This document shows, in pieces, positions 2,313-64,000 of a stretch of DNA of 64,000 nucleotides. The DNA is from Bremia lactucae. Taxonomy: Eukaryota > Oomycota > Peronosporomycetes > Peronosporales > Peronosporaceae. The notes beneath the pieces were generated by a model. The model saw nothing but the letters and a program-made list of their open reading frames with translations. It did not search any database and was not told the origin of the DNA. The position numbers and the translations under genes were made by a program. Location of the stretch: NCBI RefSeq assembly GCF_004359215.1, contig NC_090611.1:3252784-3316783 (forward strand), in the 5' to 3' direction. Each line of letters starts with the position of its first letter. The stretch's first letter is position 1.

Positions 2313-3339
2313 ACATTCCCTTGAAAGTGAGATACACCCTTGTACTGATTATCTCAACTCATAGCTACCTTTCCTTTCGTCGAAGGGCTTGGCCCTGCCG
2401 GTCGCCAATAGGTGAGCTCAGTATCTTAATGTGGATAATGCTTGTTGAAATGAAGGCTTTTGTTCGTGACTGCAAAGTTAGACATGATATGCATCGAATG
2501 GTGGACTTGATGTTTGTTACTCCAGGCTATCGTTATCAATTCAATTGAAGCAATTCAGTGGAGATACTAAACCATAAGCTCAGTGGGCAACTTAGGAGGG
2601 ACATACGATACAAGGTGAGCGACCATACTCGAAGAGTACTCCAAATTCGTGCCATTTCGATTTTGTCTTAAGAAATATACATACGGAGATATAAAAGCCG
2701 CAAAAGCATTGAACATTGTGGTTCGTACCGCATTATTTTACTTGTATCGATTTTGGTCGCCGTAAATATATCCCTTATGATAAACACGCTGAAAGGTAAG
2801 AAAAACCCGTACTTGGCTTGATTTTTTGGCAGAGTAGGCTATATGTACTTGACACGAATGCAGTGTCAGCTCCTCATTGATTACATTACACGATAAACTT
2901 CGATGGACACACCGGGGATTGAACCCGGGGCCTTCCGCATGCAAAGCGGACGCGCTACCACTGCGCTATGCGCCCGATGGAAAGTAGATCGGAATTTTCC
3001 TACTCCAAATTTGTTTAAATGACTTTAAAGACAACTTATGCACTGCTCCTTCTATCTTTTGAATTTCCATCCAATTTTTAATTTTTGTTATTTATAGCAA
3101 TCAAAAACTCACATTTTTAACAGATTCTATTGACATGACATGTATATAATGCTTGTGGAGGAATTACTTGTGTCCGAGACTGTAATACCAAAAGTGGGTA
3201 TATTGATTGAGTGTGTTATTTGTGAGTGAATTGATCTCACGCCTAGTCAGTCCTACGCAACGTTGCTGGCCATTCGTTCCATTGACGTAACTTTCCTTCT
3301 ATGTAAGTCACAGCACAAAAATGAGGGACGCCACTTTCT
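2313..3339. repeat. ~1 kb direct duplication, copy 2
   Basis: Second copy of 1-1029, offset by 2310-2312 bp. It continues past the homology into unique sequence without an N. Its flank (2240-2312) also looks continuous, so this is the better-supported copy. Confidence 0.9.
2904..2975 (-). tRNA. tRNA-Ala (TGC), copy 2
   Basis: Identical in sequence and fold to the gene at 594-665, including the TGC anticodon and the G3:U70 acceptor pair. It lies at the same place in the duplicated block. Confidence 0.95.
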
Positions 3340-22514: not shown

Positions 22515-22964
22515 TGTAACGGGGCACTGCGACTTGTACTGTTTCAGTACAAGTCCACTTCACACTGCTTCAGATGTGAGTGGTGCCTCTCGTTAGGTGA
22601 CGTACACTGTACGTATAGAGGAAGACTTCTCTTAAGGCAAGTTAGCTTAAGAGTGTAAAATGAAAACTGTATTAATATAGTTAAGTGTCTTGTTAATCTA
22701 TCTTTGTAAATGTTGTCTTAACTATAAACTAATACTAAACATGTAAATGAATTCTTATCTATCTTATCTCGTAACTCTCTTTGATTACTTCTACAGCTGA
22801 TTAGTCTGCGGAATAAATAGACATAATGGTCTATACCTATTTATGGATAAGAATTCAGGAAATTACTATTTAAAGTAATTTCCTCCAAATATTATCTACC
22901 TTTTGGATAATATTAATTAACAATCTTTTATTGTTAATTTCATGTAACGATACACCCCGTTACA
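22515..22964 (-). repeat. LTR-1 copy A (3' LTR of a minus-strand Gypsy)
   Basis: A 450-bp LTR with 7-10-bp inverted ends TGTAACGGGG...CCCCGTTACA. Directly beyond its right edge the minus strand has a purine tract (AAGGGAGGGGTGA), the polypurine primer site expected next to a 3' LTR, so the element's sense strand is minus. The last ~110 bp is a run of hairpins: arms GGAAATTACT (22858-22883), AATATTATC, ATTAACAAT and TGTAACG. Confidence 0.85.
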
Positions 22965-23041
22965 TCACCCCTCCCTTAAACGACAATCACTCTGAATGTC
23001 ATTAGGTGGAGTGGTCGCTAAATGACCACTTAATTTTTAAA

Positions 23042-23372
23042 ATGATTTTGATTGGTCAGATCCATCATTTTAAATTCCATCGCATGAAGGAACAATTCAT
23101 GCGGGGTGAGGATAGTGTTGAACCTTCGGCTGCGGTTCGTGCAGCCGCGGGTGACGCATTGTTATCTCTTGCGGTAGACGTTCCGTCTACCGTAGTGTCT
23201 TCCACTCGCACAACACTTGGTGTTGCGAGTGCACGTGGTGATTCACCACGTGAGTACGACCCCTCTTTAGAGGTCGATTATGAGTGCGAGTCGGACGAAA
23301 TGGCCGACTCGGGGAGGATGGAACAGTCGCCTGATACCCGTCAGGCGGCTGATTATGAGCCTTCGAATGAGA
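23042..23372 (+). CDS. 5' part of Gypsy antisense ORF, copy A (cut by N)
   Basis: An ATG 78 bp from the LTR edge opens a 110-codon frame on the strand opposite pol. It continues to the single N at 23373. It matches the ORF at 62116-62466 over its whole length with few changes (shared blocks FHRMK, AVRAAAGDALLSLAVDVPS, SSTRTTL, EVDYECESDE). Composition is acidic and Ser-rich. No database family is recognised. Between the copies many DNA differences fall in hairpin loops, with the arms preserved. Confidence 0.6.
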
Positions 23373-23373
23373 N
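23373..23373. other. Single-N assembly join inside LTR-1 element
   Basis: The antisense ORF stops at this N. The next bases (TTGTTAATCTATC...) repeat LTR-1 text already seen at about 22690, so two pieces of the same repeat family have been joined here. Confidence 0.85.
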
Positions 23374-23648
23374 TTGTTAATCTATCTTTGTAAATGTTGT
23401 CTTAACTATAAACTAATACTAAACATGTAAATGAATTCTTATCTATCTTATCTCGTAACTCTCTTTGATTACTTCTACAGCTGATTAGTCTGCGGAATAA
23501 ATAGACATAATGGTCTATACCTATTTATGGATAAGAATTCAGGAAATTACTATTTAAAGTAATTTCCTCCAAATATTATCTATCTTTTAGATAATATTAA
23601 TTAACAACCTTTTAGTGTTAATTTCATGTAACGATACAACCCGTTACA
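23374..23648 (-). repeat. LTR-1 copy B, partial
   Basis: Matches the last 275 bp of copy A with few changes and ends CCCGTTACA. It starts at the N, so the missing 5' part may be an assembly effect. Its internal hairpin is one pair longer than in copy A (AATATTATCT/AGATAATATT), with T-A replacing a T-G wobble. Confidence 0.85.
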
Positions 23649-24060
23649 TTCGACCTTTTCACGTAAGAAGTGAAAATTGATATCGATGTAGATGGGGTTT
23701 TGCGCCAGTGCGACACATCTTTGGTATCTTGACAGATCGATGTGGCTCCATTTTTGAGAAAACTTCACGTTCTTCAGCAGCAATCGGAGCCAGACTAGTT
23801 CTTGAGCTGCGTTGTAGAGACTCACTCTGCGCTCAAGTCGCTGCTGTTGGCTGCCGCTTCGACTTCCACGGTATAACATTGCCATTTAGGAAGAAGATGT
23901 ATCCCGTTGTAAAGCGTCGCGTATCCAAATCGCCAGCCCAATTGACATCGGCAAAAGTTTTGAGCTCTCCCTTGCTCGCACCGTCAAATACGATCCCAGT
24001 GTCTTGGGCTGTCTTCAAATATTGAGGATCCTCTTTGCTGCAATCCAGTGTGTCTTCTCA
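23649..24060 (-). pseudogene. Copia RNase H fragment
   Basis: Minus-strand reading gives the end of a Ty1/copia polyprotein in two overlapping frames: FADVNWAGDLDTRRFTTGYI and IPWKSKRQPT from 24018 to ~23840, then the post-frameshift text around EAQELVWLRLLLK and LAQNPIYIDINFHFLREKVE. This is the standard copia RNase H ending. It is interrupted by a frameshift and lacks the rest of pol. It directly abuts an LTR-1 piece, so it was truncated by insertion or by the assembly. Confidence 0.85.
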
Positions 24061-32918: not shown

Positions 32919-34020
32919 TCAATGGTCGATGCAGAACTCATACGCCTCGCACGCTGTTTCTTGCAGGCTCTTTGGGAAGAAAGTCCTCTTGCTGTGCATC
33001 TTTGCTTCAACAGGGACCCTGGCATAGTAGCGAGCCATCATATGGCCGCGCTTGCCGCATTTGAAGCAGACAACGTCTGCGTTGCCCAACCTCATTGAAG
33101 TGGCATCTGTCATCACGGCCGACGGCTTATAAAAAGCTGTTCCTGGGGCACTGTCGTAGGATTGCTCCTCAACTAAGGCAATTTGGATTGCCTCTTCCAT
33201 AGTCGACGGCGCCTTTCTGAAAAGGGCCTGTCGCGATGGGCCATGCCGTAATCCGTTTATAAACGTGGGCACCTTACTATACTCGGGAATCGGACCTACG
33301 GTAGTAGATGCCGACAGCGAGCGCATCTCCTGCACATACTTTCGCAGAGATCGCTTCGCCTGTCGCGCTCCATATAAGCGCGCCTGAAGCAACACTTCGT
33401 TGTTTGACGGTTGGTACATGGCGCGAACCTTTGACTTAAAAATCGCCCATGTAGATAACGCCTTTCTGTCCGCCATAAGCGCCGAGCAAGCCCACTCTGA
33501 GGCCTTACCGCGCAGATGCGACATGGCGTACAACACCATCCGGCTGTCGTCCTTTGTGAGCTGCGCGACACCGCATTGCTCCATGGCTAAAAAGCTAGTG
33601 GGCAATCGTGTGCGCTGCAGTTCCATCGAACTTCGGCGGGTCCATCCCAATGGGCCTCGGCTGATGCGGCCGAGCAGAGAGCATCCCAACAGTCCTGTTG
33701 AGAGCCTTGCTCCAACCCTGCTAACTCCTCAGCTCATCCTAAGTCTGAGTGACGGACTCCGCTGCAGGATAGCTCTGTTCTTCGGACGCGGCTCGGCGCT
33801 GTCTGAGCACGAATGCCTCAAACTGCTCCAACGGAATAACATGTTGCTCAGGAGGATTGTCCAAGAGCCTGGCCAAAGCTTGTTCACCAAGTCCCTGCGC
33901 CAAGCGCTCTACCACCTCCCGATGATGTTTGGCGAGGTGGGGAAACGAGCCAAATCGATATTGACGCTCATCCTCACGTACACAAGTAGAGATGCGGGTC
34001 GTGGAAAGAATTTCTAGTGC
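32919..34020 (-). pseudogene. Gypsy gag (LTR-3 family), broken zinc knuckle
   Basis: The minus strand carries a gag core of the retrotrans_gag type (LRGKASEWACSALMADRK, FKSKVRAMYQP, LLQARLYGARQ, FINGLRHGPSR) over 33689-32919, with its N-terminal part in another frame at 34020-33739. The zinc knuckle reads C-FK-C-GKRG-H-MMAR-Y: the last ligand is Tyr, not Cys. The LTR at 34028 lies just upstream on the minus strand, as a 5' LTR should. Confidence 0.85.
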
Positions 34021-40640: not shown

Positions 40641-40799
40641 ACAGTTAGTATTCAATCGTCAACGTTACTTGACTACGTAAGAAGAGTCTACCAATAAGAT
40701 AAAGCTCTTAATATTTTGATAAATTACATCATATATCCATCACAAGAATCCTTGAGAGGATTCTCGAATTTGTTTTGATCTTCATCAGATCGATACACA

Positions 40800-41760
40800 A
40801 CACGAGACCTGGCTTGACGAAATGGAAGCATCTCGTTACCTATACGAGAGACGAACTGTAGTTGATGCACGCTTCAAGCTACACCGTTTGTCTAGTGAAG
40901 CAAACTTGCCTCGCCTCTCGTGGGTGGACACATGTCTCTGCTGCTTTAGAGCTCCATGCTCCTAAGGATGTCTACTCTCTTAAAGACCCTCATTAGAGAA
41001 GCGCATCGTTTCTGAGATGCGCGAAGGGATTGAGCACCTACAATCCTTTTACGAAGGGGGGAGCGCTCGGTCTACGATGGATCCTCTGAAAAAGAGGATG
41101 GGTCTCGTCGTACTACCCGGATATTCCGCATTAGTTGGGAGCGAGGTTTCCAGCTATCATGCGTGGTAGATATCCTCGCCAACGATTGAGGTAACTAGTT
41201 CGACCCCCTTCACCTCCCGATGGTAAAATAAGCGTTCGACTAGATAACACTTCTTACCACCTAAATCCGTCAATGGATGTGGAGGAGGCGAGAAAATTGG
41301 GTTTATCTCATACGTCGAACCCGAGTCATTACCGTGACTTGGATCATGGCTTTCGGTAATTACGGGATAATGTTGATCTTGAACGTTCTCGTTGCCGCGA
41401 GTTAGCGACGACCGTCGACAGTGTTCGTCACGAACAGCTGCAAAACCGTGCTCACGTTGCGATTGGTCAACCAGCGAACGAACAGATGCATCAGTTCCTT
41501 TGTGACGAGGTGTCACCAGCTCGTCACGAGATTTCATCCTTGAAAAAGAAGTAAAACGTCTGGTTCGTGAAAACCAGATTTTGTCCCGAGACCATCAGGT
41601 ATTGACTCGGGGGCATCAGTCTTTGGCGGATGCTTTGGACCGTGCCAATCTTATTCGGAACTGGAAAAGCTTCGTACTGATGGTACGAGTGGAGACTCAA
41701 ACGTAAGAGTAGGACGCGGACGCATTCTACGAGGCAGCTCGATCGTTTCTTCATTGCCTT
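40800..41760 (+). pseudogene. Decayed copy of the Gypsy antisense ORF
   Basis: Plus-strand segments in changing frames can be aligned by eye to the antisense ORF at 62.6-63.8 kb: LSSEANLPRLSW followed by a Cys-rich CLCC (CPCC there), DVYSL, EMREGIEHLQS (EMRDAIDALQS there), GSEVSSYHA (GNEVPSCHA there) and a coiled-coil end with NQILSRDH. Opposite it on the minus strand lies a decayed chromodomain, so the overlap arrangement is the same in a strongly diverged copy. Confidence 0.75.
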
Positions 41761-42214
41761 GGTACTACAGTACACGGAATGGGCTGATAGACCTGGGGAG
41801 TAATTTATTACTGCCCACATTCGTCACTACACGCTTAAGTAGCTTTATTGTAGACAGTAGGACTATATCATTTAGTTTTAAATGAAATAACTTTTGCTCT
41901 TCCATTTTGTCAGAATTTCCGTTTCTATCGGTCCACCGCATCAGCAATGGAATCCTGTGCGAAACGGACCACTGTTTCTCGAGCCAGAGGGAATTTTCTG
42001 CTAACATGGTTTTACCATTTTTGTTTTCAGTGCGCCCAGTGCGCACAGCCGGATCATTCTCCTCTTTAGTGTGAGCATCATTGTTCTTACTAATGCCGTT
42101 GTTTCTGATGCTGAGTATGTCAGCATCGTTGTTGTCAAAGTCAGCAAAAGCCTTATCGCTATCATTTAGTTTGTAATCTTCAATTTTCATTGAATCAACA
42201 TTGGTATCATTCAC
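41157..42214 (-). pseudogene. Gypsy integrase C-terminus and chromodomain, decayed
   Basis: Minus strand: KLNDIVLLSTIKLLKRVVTN and NKLLPRSISPFRVL (integrase C-terminal barrel) from ~41900 to 41765, then PLTDLGGKKCYLVERLFYHR (chromodomain start) near 41280, with frame breaks between and after. Homologous to 63036-63989. The upstream 42214-41900 part is Asn/Asp-rich and not typical of integrase. Confidence 0.8.
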
Positions 42215-42594
42215 ATATTTCTAGATTTTCTTTGTACATATATTTGACTGTGGAGTCAATGCGTGGTGAGCAAGAGCTACGTTGTTCTTTGCTCGAGCGA
42301 CTCCCCCCCCCTTCAATAAGAGTCGATCTCAAGCAAGGTGGCTATACGTGGATGGCGTAAGCCATTCACGAGCTTAATTCCTCTTCACGTGCTCCGTTAC
42401 AACCTTTGCCAGTTCCGGCAGTGTTAGCAGTCCGTTTCTATGGACTTCTTCTTCGGAGTTCCCGAAGACGATTACAAGAGTAATGATACCCTTGTGTTTG
42501 TTGATCGTACAGCACATTTGTGAGCTCGACCTGCATCTTGCTGCAGTTTCGGAGTCGAGCACAGCCTCCGGCTGTGCTCGTTTCATTATTGACA

Positions 42595-43197
42595 CGATAT
42601 TTCGACTCCATGGGTTGCCCCGTGACCTGGTCTCAAGTTGAGAGCCCCGATTTTTGGTGTAGTTTTTGCATCTGCTTTAAAAAAAAATCCCTCGTAACAC
42701 AGTCGAAAATGTCACTTTATCACCATCGGAAATCAGGTGGTCAGACAGAACGTGCAAATTGTATCCTTGAAGGAAAAATCGCGGATACGTCAACTCTATT
42801 ACGAGTTGGTGCGTGTTTTTGTCTATGGCAGAATTTGTCATCGAAAATTCGATGAATGCATTAACAAAGCTTACGCTTTTTCTCACCAGTTGACAACTTC
42901 GCAAGCACGTATATACTTGCGGACGCACTCATACTGGCGTGGCCAGTAGAAGTTGCGACTTGTCGTGAAATAGGTATTTTCATGTCCATGATGAACACTT
43001 ATTGGTGCATCGTGGCACTCACGCATGATGCATAAAGGTTTATCATTATGGGTGGAGATGACGGCACGAGGTGTGTCGCCAGCATTTGCTGTGCAAAATA
43101 GAAAACCATTGCGTGTTGTGCATAAATATGTTGAGAATCGATACAATTTCGACAATCCTTTTAAGGTATGTTGGGGCGGAATTCGAGGGTAATCCAT
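42595..43197. pseudogene. Gypsy integrase fragments in opposite orientations
   Basis: The plus strand at 42595-42800 reads broken integrase core text (FDSMGCPVTW, GGQTERANCILE). The minus strand at 43197-42883 reads an integrase zinc-binding region (RECHDAPISVHHGHENT...Y-VRKYIRACEVV). The two belong to different insertions or to an inversion. Confidence 0.65.
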
Positions 43198-43799
43198 TAA
43201 CCCTTTAACAGCCTTATCTTCTTGATAACTCTTCTAACGTCGCCAAGTAATGTTATCGACGTAATTCTTATTGTTGCAACAGTGGCCTCGTGCAGATGAA
43301 AGGCTTTAAATCGCTAAGATTTTTTAGCAACTGAAGGTCATACTAAGAAAGATATGTATCGGAATAATGTGAGTTGTATTAATATCATTAAGTTCCCACA
43401 TCCATTCGCGCGTCAAGCAGCGATTAGTGGTGGTAATTTGATTAGTTAAATCAACCAGTGGACGGAATTGTCGCATTGCCGCTACAATATAACCGTGTAT
43501 AATAATATTGGACATGTTAAGTAAACTTATTATAATTTTCTCTCTCTACTCAAGTCTTAATATCGACCTCTAGTAGCTAAGACCTCTTAGCTACTTGTAA
43601 CCTTCCTCTGTCCGACGATCTACGTGAGTATCGAGGCACCTCACCTTAACTGTTATCCGTGTAGCTTGACTAGTACTGCTGTCAGTACTATCGAAAGGTC
43701 CCTCGTTACACTTTGTACCAATTCGTAGTCCGTTCAACGGCCTACCACGCTCCATCCGACAAGTGCATGTTTGATGAAAAAGGAGGGAGCTTTTTAGCC

Positions 43800-44310
43800 C
43801 GTCCAAAAGGCTTCCATGCAACGCTTGAAAGGTTCACTCATTTGAGTGATCATAAATGGAGAGCAGTCGACCGACGCTTTCGCGTCGACCCCGAAGCCTT
43901 AAGATCGACATTTCTGAGTTTTAGGCAGTCAACGGCGACTCATTTTTAAAAGTCTTCGTCGAATTAGACGACGCCGTTGAAGCTCGCCGCATCGATGACG
44001 ATACGACAATGGTGAAATTTGGAATGTCCATCTTAGCCGGACGTGCCAAATCTTGGGCACTAGGGCTTAAGCTTCACGACCCGTTTGTTTTTGGGTCGCA
44101 TGAGATCTCTAAGACCCAACTCAGGCAAACGTTTGAACCTTCATGTGCCGAAAGTAGGGCTTGAGCAGAGCTTCTGGATTTAAAATAGGGCAAGCGCGGT
44201 CTTCACGCTTTTACCCAACATACACGATACCTAGTAAGTTGTATCGTGAGTCATACAATTGATGAACACAGGTAACTAACTTTATTAAGGATCTAGCCGA
44301 CGGTCCTGTC
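43800..44310 (+). pseudogene. Gypsy gag core fragment
   Basis: Plus strand after ~43990: DDDTTMVKFGMSILAGRAKS, WALGLKLHDP, TQLRQTFEP, a retrotrans_gag core with in-frame stops near 44162 and 44189. It is flanked by strong hairpins, e.g. TAGTACTG-ctgt-CAGTACTA near 43671 and an 11-bp stem at 44460-44483. Confidence 0.75.
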
Positions 44311-45334
44311 AAGATCCACCAGTTCCGGCTCGAATTGGAGCTTTGTAACGGGGCACCCTTTGCTAGTACTGATAACAGTATTAGTGAACCTACAATGATT
44401 ACAGTGAAGGTGGGGTGCCTCGTCTACTTCACGTGCACGACGCGCAGAGGAAGGTTCTAAGTAGCTAAGAGGTCTTAGCTACTAAAGATAAATTCTATAG
44501 TTTTAGAATAGAGAAAGAGTCAAACTGATAAATATAGTAAGTGCTATCGTAACGATCTTCTATTTCCTAGTCTTTATAGATTATTAACTAACTATGCAAT
44601 ATGCCTCCTTGCGCGACGCCTAATCGTGTCTTGTAACGATTGGTGGGGCTAATTCAAGCTTAAATCAACCAATTAACAGAACTAATGCCTAATTGCATCA
44701 ATATTACCAACTTTGGTTATGTTGGAACTATTAAGTCAAAATTGATATGAGATAATGATTTTGTACTTCTTTGTCGATTTCGTCTCAGAGAAAATATTGT
44801 TAATTATTCCCATTATAAAATATAATATATATGTAACGGAACACCCCGTTACACGCTTGATCAAGTGATCTCTGCAGCGGAACAGGAGGACTTCAGCTTG
44901 AAACAGGCTTTCCTCTACTTGGTGATTATTGTCCAAACAGACGAAAAAAATGGAGGTTCAGAACCTGTAGACCTCTCGTATGTGGAGAGCGAGAAACCTC
45001 GCTCTTGAAGCTACAAACGATTGCAAACATGCAATCGTTGTCGAAAGACGGAAAACTATGCTCAGTAGTGTAGTGCCCCACGCCAGTGCCTAAAATCACT
45101 GAGCAAAACAATCGACCTCCCGCTAACAATAGCGGAGGACGCAGATCCGAAGACGTTATAAAATCGCAACGGTGAGGCGGCAAAAAATGGTCGGGGTCAG
45201 TAAGTGTGGAGCGCTCTACTGATCCTGCAACGTCAAGAATTTACAGGCCTTTTAGAGAAAGTTGCTCCTCACACAGAAGCCTTGCGTGTAATTGCCCCAG
45301 GTGATGAGGTTAAACGCATCACCTTGAAAACATA

Positions 45335-47107
45335 GTGGCAAATAAATTGCCACTTAAGTCCCTATTCGATTGTAAGGCGTCGAACAATTTCATTCGACGG
45401 CAAACGCTTGAAGATCACAGGCTTAAGTTCGTTAAGCGCGATATACCCGTAACGGGGATGACAGCACGCCTAGCAACAGGCGCATTTGTACCAGCTAAGA
45501 GCCGTATAGTTTCTTTGCTGTTACAGATGTACTGGTTTCTAATACACGATGAAGGGTACCCAGTACGATGATGATTTCATCGTGCTTAATTTGGATGACC
45601 AATTTTATGTTATTCTTGAATTCCATGGCTCAGAAAGTACGAACCATATATAAATTAACAGCATTTATCCGTTGCGAAGCCTGGTCATCAGAAAGCCTGG
45701 TCATCAGATGGCCATCTAACGAACGTCTTGGAGCGTCCACAAGCGTGTGGATGTCCTCCGAGTGACCGCGACGCCTCACATGTGGTTCGGTCGTTTGCAC
45801 AATGTGACGAGTGATCACATTGTGAAGTTAGATTCCGACAGCTGTGCACAACCCCAGGCAGCGTCGAAGTTCTATCACTTGAGTAAGTTGAGTGGTATAA
45901 AACAAGGATGCTTGCTTCGAAAGCAAAATCCAAGCAAATTTGAAGCGCCTGTCTATAAGAGACAGTGCGAAAGTCCTAGATCGACTGGAGTCGATCTTAG
46001 AGGATCTCGCTGTAGTTGCGCAGCCACATTTGGAGAGGTTACTCCCAAAATAAAACTTAAGGGAACAAGTCTCAAGGCTCTGCGTAAAAAGTCCTCAAAA
46101 CATGTGGTAAAAGGTTTCAAGGTTACTTAATTTGTAAAGAGGAAACTAAGACATTTAATGCCTTAGCAAACAACGGATCAAGTGCAAGTGCTCATACACA
46201 GATCGGTACGGCATTTCGCACCGAGTTATTTTGATGACGTCTTCTTTCATACGGAGCAATGATTGGAAATTCGGACGTTAACGCTCATCGTACCCATATT
46301 CGAAAGGTTTTTCTACTTAGGCGTAAACATAAGCTGTATGCAACTCTCGAACATTCTATTTGCTGCACAATACCACTTTGCTGCATCGCGGACAAAACGG
46401 TGTGAATACTGATCCGGAAAAGATCAAGGTGACCACTGAATGGCCTGTACCAGCCAAAGTAAAGGAACTTCAAAAGTTCCTTGGCTTAGCGGCTTACTTA
46501 AATATGTACTCACGCGATTATGCCGAAATGACAGTACAATTTTTTTTCTTTGTTGAAGAAAAATGTTAGTGCTCACGGAACGTTGATTGTCAGCGTTCTT
46601 ATATTTTTTCTAGCAAAGTCGCCGATCCGGCGATTGTATACCAGGACGGACCATTTCGTGTGGTCTGAAACACCAATTTTGCAATCTGCTGTGTGTTAAT
46701 GCAATATGACACAGACGGCATAGAGCGCATCGTCTGTTATCAATCGCATCAGCTTTTAACGCTAAGCGAAACTATACAGTGCATGACTAGGAACTTCTTG
46801 CCACGAAATTGAACTGGCTAAGTTTCGAGTATGTCTCTTGATAGATAGACCGTTCATTGTTTATACGGACCATGCGTCTTTACGTACGGCTGTAAGCAGT
46901 TCACACCCCTCGCAAAGAATGTCGAGACGGTTGTCTTTCTTCGCGGAGTATAATTGCTTAGTGGATTACAAACAAGGACGACTAAATGTCAGCCCTGATG
47001 CCCTTCCGCGCAGGCTCATTTTTAATCCGGCTCCGCAAAACAACAGTGGGGACGCCGTGTACGTGAAGAATTCGGAGGCACATTTTCCTTCACTTTTATC
47101 GGTGTAG
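45335..47107 (+). pseudogene. Gypsy protease, RT thumb and RNase H, decayed
   Basis: The plus strand shows protease text LFDCKASNNFIRR (active site normally D-S/T-G-A, here DCKA), then FYVIL and related linker text, RT thumb at 46400-46530 (VNTDPEKIKVTTEWPVPAKVK, LGLAAYLNMYSRDYAEM) and RNase H at 46690-47070 (IDRPFIVYTDHASLRTAVSS). Frames change several times. A perfect 9-bp hairpin (46462-46482) lies inside the RT codons for KELQKFLG. Confidence 0.8.
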
Positions 47108-61592: not shown

Positions 61593-62034
61593 TGTAACGC
61601 GGCACTACGGCTTGAACTGCTTCAGTACAAGTCGACTTCGCACTGCTTCAGTTGCGAGTGGTGCCTTACGTTAATTGTCGCACACTGTACGTGCAGAGGA
61701 ATACTTCTCTTAAGACAAGTAGACTTAAGAGAATAAAATGAAAATTGTATTAAATATAATTAAGTGTCTCTAGTTCTATCTTTGTAAATGCTAACTTAAT
61801 TATAATCTAATACTAAACATGTAAATGAATTCTTATCTGTAACTCTCTTTGGTTACTCCTGCAGCTGATTAGTCTGCGGAATTAATAGACATAATGGCCT
61901 ATACCTATTCATGAATAAGACTTCTGAATATTACTATGTAAAGTAATATCCTTTAAATATTATCTACCTTTTAGATTATACATAAATTAACAACCTTTAA
62001 GTGTTAATTTAATGTAACGATACACCCCGTTACA
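61593..62034 (-). repeat. LTR-1 copy D (3' LTR of the right-edge Gypsy)
   Basis: A 442-bp LTR, TGTAACGCGG...CCCCGTTACA. The polypurine tract beside it on the minus strand and the minus-strand pol end at 63036 show it is the 3' LTR. The hairpin at 61928-61949 has arms ATATTACT/AGTAATAT where copy A has AAATTACT/AGTAATTT, a compensatory pair change. Confidence 0.9.
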
Positions 62035-62047
62035 TCACCCCTCACTT
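62035..62047 (-). promoter_or_regulatory. Polypurine tract of the LTR-1 Gypsy
   Basis: Minus strand reads AAGTGAGGGGTGA ending exactly at the TG of the LTR; in copy A the same site reads AAGGGAGGGGTGA. A purine run at this spot is the plus-strand primer of LTR retrotransposons and fixes the element's sense strand as minus. Confidence 0.8.
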
Positions 62048-62115
62048 AACCGACAATCACTCTGAATGTCATTGGATGGAGTGGTCGCTATGTGACCACT
62101 TAATTTTTTGAAACG

Positions 62116-62466
62116 ATGTTGATAAGTCAGATCCATCATTTTAAATTCCATCGCATGAAGGGTCAATTCATGCGGGGTGGCGATAGTGCTGCGCCTTCGG
62201 CTGCGGTTCGTGCAGCCGCGGGTGACGCATTGCTATCTCTTGCGGTAGACGTTCCGTCTGCCGTAGTGTCTTCCACTCGCACAACACTAGATGTTGCGAG
62301 TGCACGTGGTGATTTACCACGTGAATACGACTTCTCTTTGGAGGTCGACTACGAATGCGAGTCGGATGAAGTGGTCGACTCGGGGAGAATGGAACAGTCG
62401 CCTGAAATACATCAGGCGGCTGACTATGAGCCTTCGAATGAGAGGCTCATTCTATTAGACGAGTAA
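62116..62466 (+). CDS. Gypsy antisense ORF, 5' part
   Basis: ATG 62116 is 82 bp from the LTR edge, on the strand opposite pol. The 116 codons are acidic and Ser/Ala-rich and match 23042-23372 over the shared length. The frame ends at TAA 62464-62466 two codons after ILLDE. A GT at 62463 and an AG at 62580 would remove 118 bp and join in frame to the 408-codon ORF, for about 530 residues. The removed stretch, however, also reads as acidic, Ser/Pro-rich protein in another frame (LFGSDDEDDPSSPVRS), so two frameshifts in an originally continuous ORF are equally possible. Confidence 0.6.
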   Translation: MLISQIHHFKFHRMKGQFMRGGDSAAPSAAVRAAAGDALLSLAVDVPSAVVSSTRTTLDVASARGDLPREYDFSLEVDYECESDEVVDSGRMEQSPEIHQAADYEPSNERLILLDE

Positions 62467-62611
62467 ACAGTCTATTTGGATCTGACGATGAGGATGATCC
62501 CTCATCGCCCGTACGATCTCCCATACGGTCACCTGCACGTGTCTCAGTGCAAGGTGACGACGATGGCGTAAGCCATCAAGTAAGAAAAGTTTTTGTGGTA
62601 CCCCTGCTTCA

Positions 62612-63838
62612 GTGGGTACCACTCAGGGGAGTGAAGACAATAAATTGTCTCATCTCGCCCCTGAAAAGAAGCCGTGGCTTTTGCCAGAAAGGCTTATTAA
62701 TAGCTTGTTTGGAGAAACTACTCCTCACAATAAATATTTCTTATTTATTGCGACAAAGCTACATGGGCTTGATCCCAGCGCGAAGAACTTTCGCGCTGAG
62801 GAAAATTTCGATCTCGATGCTTTTCTTAAGCATCGATGGTTTAGTGGCAACAATAAGCGAGACTTTATCTCGCTTATGCAAGCTTGGAATGCGTTCATTC
62901 GCAATGTCAAAGACATTGGACGCGAAGCTTGGCTTCAAAACCTTAACGCGAATCGCGTAAAATTTGAGAAAAGAACTCCAACCGGTGCAAACTATAAATC
63001 GCGTCGGTTGTCCCGTGAGGCTGGGCTTCTATGCCTCACGTGGGGTTATCCCTGTCCGTGTTGTGCAGACAACTCGGAGAGGGTAAAAGGGGATGTCTAT
63101 TCCCTTTCTTCGCCCTGGGGAAGGGCTCGCATCTCCATTGAGATGCGTGACGCGATTGACGCTTTGCAATCGCTTTGCAGGCGCCAGGGGCGCGTGTTTT
63201 CCGATGGGCCTTCTGAACCATCGGGTGGGTCTCGTCATACTGACGGACGAGGCCCTCAACGTCAACAATCAGCTGGGAACGAGGTTCCCAGCTGTCATGC
63301 GAAGGTGGATAACCTCGCCAGCGAACAAGATAACTCGTTCGCTGCCCCTTCACATCACGGTGGTTCTGGATGCGCTCCACAAGGAAACGTTGACCACCGT
63401 GGGAGTCCACCAAAGGTTGTGGTGGAGGAGGGAAAATTAGATCTGAACTGTATGTCGGATCTAATGTCGAAGATCGACAAAATGGATCACTTCCTCCATG
63501 ATTTGGAGGAGGGTCTTGAACACGAGCGCGGTAAGCGTCGCTCGTTGGAACAGATGGTGCAGAATCACCATATCGAGCGGTTGGAAGACCGTTCGAAGGG
63601 TGCGTACTCCTTGTTGGAGTACGAGCGGAACTATCATGCTGTTCGCGATGAGCTGTCATCAGCTCATCGTAGTTTCGAGGATCTTCGGAACAAGCATGAG
63701 AAACTTCAGGTTCAACATGAGAACCTGGTTCGCGATCACAAGAATCTTTTGGGGATTCTTGAAAAGGGTGGTCACATCCGTCCTCGGAAGAAGCCGCGTA
63801 CTGATGGTACGGGCGGAGCCGACCAACGTAAAACGTAG
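62612..63838 (+). CDS. Gypsy antisense ORF, main part (408 codons)
   Basis: A long open frame antisense to pol. It has no early ATG (first codon GTG), which fits being a downstream exon or segment of the ORF starting at 62116. Residues ~25-130 look globular (RWFSGNNKRD, AFIRNVKDIGREAWLQNLN). A Cys-rich motif CPCC sits at ~148-151. Residues ~285-375 are a strong coiled coil (LEEGLEHERGKRRSLEQMVQ, RNKHEKLQVQHENLVRDHKN), and the end is basic (RPRKKPR). Its last ~800 bp overlaps the pol C-terminus on the other strand. Homologous segments occur at 28.0 kb and 40.8-41.8 kb. No known family is recognised. A role as an antisense-encoded regulator is speculation from architecture. Confidence 0.65.
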   Translation: MGTTQGSEDNKLSHLAPEKKPWLLPERLINSLFGETTPHNKYFLFIATKLHGLDPSAKNFRAEENFDLDAFLKHRWFSGNNKRDFISLMQAWNAFIRNVKDIGREAWLQNLNANRVKFEKRTPTGANYKSRRLSREAGLLCLTWGYPCPCCADNSERVKGDVYSLSSPWGRARISIEMRDAIDALQSLCRRQGRVFSDGPSEPSGGSRHTDGRGPQRQQSAGNEVPSCHAKVDNLASEQDNSFAAPSHHGGSGCAPQGNVDHRGSPPKVVVEEGKLDLNCMSDLMSKIDKMDHFLHDLEEGLEHERGKRRSLEQMVQNHHIERLEDRSKGAYSLLEYERNYHAVRDELSSAHRSFEDLRNKHEKLQVQHENLVRDHKNLLGILEKGGHIRPRKKPRTDGTGGADQRKT

Positions 63839-63989
63839 GATGCGTTCGCATCCTACGTGGCAATTCTATTGTGTACGCATTGCCTCTTCGATGCAGTACA
63901 CGGAAAGGCCCAATGAACTTGGGTAGTAGTTTACTGCTACCCACATTAGTGACTAATCGCTTAGGTAAGTTTACCGTAGAGAGTAGCAC
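63036..63989 (-). CDS. Gypsy pol C-terminus: integrase barrel and chromodomain (partial)
   Basis: The frame is open to the right edge of the window, so this is the 3' end of a larger gag-pol. Counting from 63989, residues ~20-63 are the integrase C-terminal SH3-like barrel (SSKLLPKFIGPFRVLHRRGN, HPTFYVGRLRPY). A Pro/Ser/His-rich linker follows. Residues ~200-255 are a chromodomain (RFLVERIQNHRD, SYLVRWRGYPPSHDSWEP) with the aromatic residues of the methyl-lysine cage region largely in place, which would steer integration to marked chromatin. It stops at 63036, about 1 kb before the 3' LTR. That 1-kb gap is covered by the antisense ORF. Confidence 0.9.
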   Translation of the reverse strand: MLLSTVNLPKRLVTNVGSSKLLPKFIGPFRVLHRRGNAYTIELPRRMRTHPTFYVGRLRPYHQYAASSEDGCDHPFQESPKDSCDREPGSHVEPEVSHACSEDPRNYDELMTAHREQHDSSARTPTRSTHPSNGLPTARYGDSAPSVPTSDAYRARVQDPPPNHGGSDPFCRSSTLDPTYSSDLIFPPPPQPLVDSHGGQRFLVERIQNHRDVKGQRTSYLVRWRGYPPSHDSWEPRSQLIVDVEGLVRQYDETHPMVQKAHRKTRAPGACKAIAKRQSRHASQWRCEPFPRAKKGNRHPLLPSPSCLHNTDRDNPT

Positions 63990-64000
63990 TAGATCATTAA

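What the first reader, a model, noticed from the sequence alone, without database searches (positions are those of the whole stretch)
61593..63989. Retrotransposon DNA paved with consecutive short hairpins
Seen: from the LTR to the window end the sequence is an almost unbroken series of short inverted repeats, each unrelated to the next. Examples with perfect arms: 62080-62100 (7 bp), 62303-62323 (8), 62595-62622 (9), 62776-62798 (9), 62853-62877 (10), 63270-63294 (11, loop 3), 63603-63623 (8), 63646-63669 (10, loop 4), 63833-63858 (12, loop 2, across the antisense stop codon). I count a stem of at least 6 bp roughly every 40-60 bases. A perfect 7-bp stem with a short loop is expected about once per kb by chance. 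This runs through LTR, non-coding and double-coding sequence alike, which ordinary coding constraint does not explain. Possible causes are repeated template switching during reverse transcription, selection for RNA structure, or a source of dsRNA for silencing.
Basis: partly seen in the sequence, partly recalled or inferred. Interest (0 to 1): 0.9.

Follow-up and report, generated by a model that had tools for sequence, protein, structure and literature searches.

The report
Retrotransposon built of consecutive short hairpins
A Ty3/gypsy-type jumping element in an oomycete genome (probably lettuce downy mildew) is made almost end to end of short perfect hairpins, and its paired bases seem to be protected by selection while the element still copies itself.

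Summary
Predicted RNA folding is 43-45% stronger than shuffles on either strand; neighbouring host genes show no excess. All 50 aligned copies exceed their shuffles. Most readable pol-side pieces and an older gypsy family also show it; one Copia and one RVT_1 piece do not.

Private (mostly post-insertion) variants hit stems, loops and other bases equally; variants shared by copies are about half as frequent in stems. So pairing seems protected only while the element replicates. This was not seen in 11 badly aligned pol pieces. Some loops occur as exact reverse complements in some copies, the mark of template switching at formed hairpins. Switching looks too rare, and compensated pairs too few, to maintain the stems.

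Best reading: a retrotransposon counterpart of genome-scale ordered RNA structure in RNA viruses. RNA rather than DNA level is inferred. Ten open-access paper searches returned no such report.

The parts
61593..62034 (-). LTR (TG...CA), read as the 3' LTR of an element whose pol lies on the - strand
   Evidence: Sequence; copies of the LTR in many loci and at 22.5-23.6 kb of the window; 4 stems >=7 against 0.8
62000..64000 (.). Hairpin-paved stretch: 35 perfect stems >=7 bp
   Evidence: continues beyond the window in readable pol-side pieces of other copies
62104..63838 (+). Antisense ORF in two frames in this copy (62104-62466 and 62558-63838), conserved in downy mildews, no Pfam family
63036..63998 (-). 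C-terminal part of pol (Tf2-type SH3 domain and chromodomain), overlapping the antisense ORF by 803 bases
62243..62263 (.). Hairpin with 3-base loop in two orientations among copies (GAA 23, TTC 8, other or gap 19), about 7 changes on the copy tree
62358..62382 (.). Hairpin whose 9-base loop is exactly inverted in one copy (L008), nearly so in L053
62777..62797 (.). Hairpin with 5-base loop exactly inverted in L004
62853..62877 (.). 10-bp hairpin; the window copy itself carries the inverted 5-base loop
63270..63294 (.). 11-bp hairpin, loop 3; loop inverted in L052
63833..63858 (.). 12-bp hairpin across the stop codon of the antisense ORF, the longest perfect stem here

Best explanation
The element's transcript is kept folded as a train of short, unbranched, nearly perfect hairpins, a retrotransposon counterpart of the genome-scale ordered RNA structure (GORS) of RNA viruses. 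Shown: the density, its presence in 50 of 50 aligned copies, the folding excess, stems that vary less than loops and other sites only among variants shared by copies, and occasional inversion of hairpins. Inferred: that selection acts on RNA (perhaps on both the genomic RNA and the antisense-ORF mRNA, as no wobble class is clearly spared) and that the benefit is to deny single-stranded target to small RNAs or to the opposite transcript, or to compact the genomic RNA. Template switching may have supplied palindromes and causes the loop flips; selection keeps them.
For: Density and folding excess. Singletons per column equal (stem 0.662, loop 0.674, rest 0.662), shared variants not (0.138, 0.348, 0.264); holds in 100 of 100 split halves and below the rest in 12 of 12 region-by-codon strata, with matched ascertainment, and in 0 of 1000 circular shifts is the ratio as low. 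Synonymous shuffles lose the stems. Older copies fold less. Reduced diversity at paired sites and consecutive unbranched stem-loops are also reported for coronavirus GORS (PMC7642675, passages).
Against: No clear G-U tolerance on either strand (one search gives relative ratios GT 0.51, AC 0.66, other 0.53). No excess of compensated pairs (34 double changes against 31.2, 19 of them paired; 159 against 62, only 66 paired). No stem protection in 11 pol pieces (0.271 stem, 0.279 rest). No expression, small-RNA or probing data. Only 4 of 12 stems of the older family are in register with the 21 here.
Confidence: 0.55

Rival explanations
1. Mutational ratchet: template switching between arms, in reverse transcription or host replication, repeatedly turns imperfect palindromes into perfect ones, and hairpins pile up without being selected.
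For: Loop inversions, exact in several stems, one recurrent; switching is known to homogenise arms and invert spacers in yeast genes (PMC8604942, abstract and one section) and to create perfect stems (PMC8794818, abstract and discussion). No wobble class is clearly spared, as expected if any mismatch is corrected.
Against: Symmetric correction should leave many new perfect arm pairs; alternative perfect arms occur at 10 of 52 helices, eight of them in one copy only. Shared variation in stems is reduced, not moved into compensated pairs. Flips are few beside point variants (inference).
Confidence: 0.25
2. DNA-level function: hairpins matter in single-stranded cDNA or in the integrated DNA (for example strand transfer, priming, or chromatin), not in RNA.
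For: Equal effect on both strands; all mismatch classes suppressed alike; loop inversions show folding during nucleic-acid synthesis.
Against: Stems of 7-12 bp are short for extrusion from duplex DNA (recalled, not tested); no known step of LTR-element copying needs a hairpin every 50 bases (recalled).
Confidence: 0.13
3. The hairpins are a source of dsRNA for silencing of the element.
For: Small RNAs from LTR elements are abundant in the related Phytophthora infestans (PMC3522703, passages).
Against: No perfect stem over 12 bp in 62-64 kb; protection of stems in the element's own transmitted lineage does not fit a cost to the element.
Confidence: 0.04
4. By-product of protein sequence, codon usage or composition.
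For: Synonymous shuffles keep somewhat more stems (2.1 in 1278 bases) than dinucleotide shuffles of the region (1.71 in 2001 bases).
Against: 21 observed against a maximum of 7 in 500 synonymous shuffles; stems below other sites in 12 of 12 strata including noncoding.
Confidence: 0.03

Closest known systems
Genome-scale ordered RNA structure (GORS) of positive-strand RNA viruses such as coronaviruses and hepatitis C virus (PMC7642675, passages)
   Same: Consecutive, largely unbranched stem-loops through coding and noncoding sequence; folding well beyond shuffles; less diversity at paired sites
   Different: LTR retrotransposon; 2-kb mean excess 43-45% against genome means of about 15% (SARS-CoV-2) and 23.4% (highest recorded there), though that paper also has a local peak over 50%; stems are perfect Watson-Crick and equal on both strands
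Template-switch mutations at inverted repeats: arm homogenisation and spacer inversion (PMC8604942; PMC8794818)
   Same: Spacers inverted in place in some copies, recurrently at one hairpin
   Different: Tens of hairpins in 2 kb of one element; arm homogenisation hardly seen; flips also at arms of 8 bp, whereas the yeast paper saw them only above 9
Chromodomain Ty3/gypsy elements with an extra antisense ORF beside the 3' LTR (known from plants; recalled, from no call)
   Same: Pol ending in SH3 and chromodomain; extra ORF on the opposite strand next to the 3' LTR
   Different: The ORF overlaps the pol end by 803 bases and belongs to a downy-mildew family without Pfam match; I recall no hairpin paving in the plant elements

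Membership tests
Ty3/gypsy LTR retrotransposon, chromodomain type | LTR and chromodomain-bearing integrase end | tested here: met
   LTR 61593-62034; SH3_Tf2-1 and Chromo over Pfam cut-offs
Ty3/gypsy LTR retrotransposon, chromodomain type | Order of reverse transcriptase, RNase H and integrase in pol | not tested
   The window ends inside pol and the next 5829 bases read N
GORS | Folding energy well beyond dinucleotide shuffles over long stretches | tested here: met
   43% (+) and 45% (-) in 350-nt fragments of the window copy; 28-50% in six other copies; host -0.7%
GORS | Extends over most of the genome of the element | tested here: inconclusive
   12 of 13 readable right-hand flanks above expectation, one with none; most of pol unreadable in the window copy
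GORS | Paired sites less variable than unpaired sites | tested here: met
   for 62-64 kb; not seen in the 11 pol pieces
GORS | Structure present in the RNA and tied to persistence or evasion | not testable with these tools
   No RNA data
Template-switch palindromes | Spacer inversion with arms kept | tested here: met
Template-switch palindromes | Arm homogenisation leaving compensated multi-base changes | tested here: not met
   Alternative perfect arms at 10 of 52 helices, mostly one pair in one copy; no excess of double changes there

The most novel reading that the evidence does not exclude
A clade of oomycete Ty3/gypsy elements is under selection to be folded end to end into short hairpins, perhaps in both transcripts: an ordered-genome structure in a retroelement, denser than the viral genome means I could compare with. 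Since gypsy elements are reported to fill over half of the contig sequence of Bremia lactucae (PMC6570648, passages), a large share of such a genome could be hairpin-paved.
Probability: 0.45. Interest if true: 0.87.

Novelty: new variant of a known kind. Interest (0 to 1): 0.74.

Why it matters
If selection on structure is right, a retrotransposon has evolved an architecture described in RNA viruses, possibly against RNA silencing. Oomycete gypsy families would become a natural experiment: many copies of different age let one measure how structure is gained, kept and lost. The dense hairpins also let loop flipping by template switching be clocked. And it warns that short inverted repeats, predicted microRNA precursors and clustered multi-base differences in such genomes may stem from this architecture.

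Tried and rejected
Rejected: chance and composition; codon usage; a trait of every mobile element of the host (Copia piece L072: 2 stems against 0.7; RVT_1 piece L073: 0 against 0.8; one sample each, so weak).

Led nowhere: covariation within the family, since most differences look like post-insertion decay. Comparison with the older family at 40.8-41.9 kb: 5 compensated pairs against 2.2 expected, 4 uncompensated against 2.8, 4 of its 12 stems in register; too decayed to settle conservation. Which strand's RNA: G-T beside stems outnumbers A-C on the + strand in most copies, but so would base composition. Relatives in viral contigs: 57 pattern matches, none confirmed. Fold of the antisense protein: mean pLDDT 63, no PDB match at E <= 0.001. 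No call names the organism: fumarase is 100% identical to an unnamed protein and 93% to Plasmopara halstedii and Phytophthora palmivora; 115.93 Mb in 220 contigs fits Bremia lactucae (115 Mb assembly). That is inference.

Limits: 70 of the 71 loci then held were screened (L031 left out); 50 kept after dropping 20 duplicate or overlapping places. Variant counts use columns with at least 35 letters or 30 (strata, 69). Right-hand flanks: 13 of 30 had over 700 readable bases; 11 were aligned (L010 and L020 left out). The first 30 copies are the best-scoring matches of 40 candidates scored out of 4006. Copies are related, so the counts are not independent events.

Full report
WHAT IS THERE. The interval is one end of a Ty3/gypsy-type element on the - strand: an LTR at 61593-62034 (TG...CA), then, going right, the C-terminal part of pol on the - strand (63036-63998; Tf2-type SH3 and chromodomain). 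Opposite lies a + strand ORF (62558-63838, with a first part at 62104-62466 in another frame in this copy). It has 38 relatives at E <= 0.001, 35-93% identical; those named are from Peronospora and Hyaloperonospora. It has no Pfam family; a low-confidence model shows a helical domain and a long coiled coil. The host is an oomycete, probably Bremia lactucae (inference).

Host genes at 48-61 kb have 16 in 13 kb. RNAfold in 200-nt windows: mean z -5.60 (+) and -5.41 (-) over 10 windows each, against +0.16 and +0.21 over 33 host windows each. In 350-nt fragments the excess over 15 shuffles is 43% (+) and 45% (-), 28-50% in six other copies (lowest in L017, L029, L067), -0.7% in 13 host fragments. 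For scale, PMC7642675 gives about 15% for SARS-CoV-2, 7.5-10.7% for hepatitis C virus and 23.4% as the highest recorded genome mean, but also a local peak over 50% in one gene (passages). A 2-kb mean is not strictly like for like. It is not coding: shuffling synonymous codons leaves on average 2.1 (maximum 7 of 500) where 21 are seen for the + protein, and 1.6 (maximum 7) where 15 are seen for the - protein.

HOW WIDE. The DNA search scored 40 of 4006 candidates and returned 46 matches. In the 50 copies kept for alignment, 50 of 50 have more stems than any of 20 shuffles of the same sequence (6.2-17.5 per kb; mean expected 1.72 per copy). Of 13 readable right-hand (pol-side) flanks, 12 exceed expectation (3-14 stems against 0.8-1.9) and one, L020, has none. 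Three pol-side pieces fold with mean z -3.1 to -5.3. An older gypsy family at 40.7-46.6 kb has a 21% excess on both strands, and 24-35 kb, which holds gypsy remnants, 12.6%. One Copia piece (z -0.3) and one RVT_1 piece (z +1.0) have none. So it appears to be a trait of some gypsy elements, not of the host; the negative controls are single samples. The LTR folds less strongly but has 4 stems against 0.8.

CONSTRAINT IN THE REPLICATING LINEAGE. In the 50-copy alignment I compared variants seen in one copy (mostly after insertion) with variants in at least 3 copies (passed on by replication). Singletons per column are equal: stem 0.662, loop 0.674, rest 0.662. Shared variants are not: 0.138, 0.348, 0.264. 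With stems defined in one random half and variants counted in the other, 100 of 100 splits agree. With stems defined in the window copy alone, and only columns where it has the common base, shared/private is 0.190 (stem), 0.407 (loop), 0.323 (rest); Fisher p 4e-4 against rest and 2e-4 against loop. Sliding the stem mask round the alignment gives a ratio as low in 0 of 1000 trials. Stems are below the rest in 12 of 12 region-by-codon-position strata and below loops in 11 of 12. Against this: in the 11 pol pieces, which align badly (2375 columns from at most 1500 bases each), stems are no less variable than other sites (0.271 against 0.279). Copies are related, so these are not independent events.

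WATSON-CRICK RATHER THAN WOBBLE. Changes in stems that leave G-T, A-C or no pair have shared/private ratios 25/104, 27/87 and 17/213; against transitions (0.690) and transversions (0.199) elsewhere, all three are cut to about 0.35-0.45. With the window copy as definer the relative ratios are 0.51, 0.66 and 0.53. An RNA structure on one strand should spare one wobble class; none is clearly spared. Either both transcripts count, or exact pairing counts, or the sample is too small. Four nearly fixed internal mismatches are all G-T on the + strand, a weak hint towards RNA of that strand. Compensated double changes are not in excess in the whole set (34 against 31.2 expected, 19 of them paired). 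Among 11 intact copies double changes exceed expectation (159 against 62), but most, 93, do not pair.

HAIRPINS FLIP. Of 51 helices examined, several have copies whose loop is the exact reverse complement of the common loop. Strong cases, with 5-7 differing bases: 62358 (nine-base loop, L008), 62777 (L004), 62854 (the window copy). Three-base cases: 62080 (L017), 62243 (8 copies), 63270 (L052). Weak, explicable by one or two point changes: 62562 and 62939. Near-exact cases occur in L053, L067 and L071. A search blind to stems, for segments present in both orientations with at least 4 differences, found 8 places, 6 at hairpins, up to 25 bases long. Reversed-only and complemented-only controls gave 12 and 2 uncollapsed hits of at most 9 and 4 bases. 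One further case lies in pol (3 copies against 2, 11 bases; shorter hits there may be chance). The 62243 loop changes orientation about 7 times on the copy tree for 8 carriers; internal branches are short, so this may be overstated. It is the spacer inversion by template switching described in yeast genes (PMC8604942, abstract and one section), and shows that the hairpins form in nucleic acid being copied.

HOW IT MOST LIKELY WORKS. Switching can make palindromes (PMC8794818, abstract and discussion), but as upkeep it should leave many new perfect arm pairs. Alternative perfect arms occur at 10 of 52 helices, eight of them in a single copy. Purifying selection on pairing in the active lineage fits better. 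In Phytophthora infestans small RNAs come mostly from LTR elements and map along the two commonest gypsy elements (PMC3522703, passages), so shielding from silencing or from the antisense transcript is my favoured benefit; that step is inferred. Confidence: 0.55 selection on RNA structure, 0.25 mutational ratchet, 0.13 DNA-level function.

NOVELTY. Ordered genome-scale RNA structure is known in RNA viruses. Ten full-text searches of the open-access library (listings, plus the passages and sections named above) returned no report of it in an LTR retrotransposon. Subscription papers and preprints were not covered.

Noticed in passing
62104-63838 (+): Antisense ORF overlapping the pol 3' end by 803 bases, conserved in Peronospora and Hyaloperonospora at 35-54% identity, no Pfam family; low-confidence model: helical domain about 44-154 and coiled coil 296-403.
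   Followed up: partly
40700-46600: Older, decayed relative (51% to pol over 107 aa, 35% to the antisense ORF over 136 aa) that is also hairpin-rich (21% folding excess); its other genome copies are 71-79% identical to it.
   Followed up: partly
22515-23649: Second fragment of the same family with LTR-like pieces at 22690-22965 and 23374-23649, 98% identical to each other.
   Followed up: no
32919-33728 (-) and L031 from 8502: Gag-like ORF with a CCHC-type motif (motif recognised from memory) in another gypsy copy; the 32-34 kb stretch also folds strongly (mean z -2.5 in 5 windows).
   Followed up: no
G000, e.g. C13:2208036-2208638: 57 of the 151 listed pol-end matches have the same score, 84% identity and a 220-aa open frame: looks like a young, truncated subfamily.
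   Followed up: no
1-1029 and 2313-3339: Direct repeat of about 1 kb, 99.4% identical.
   Followed up: no
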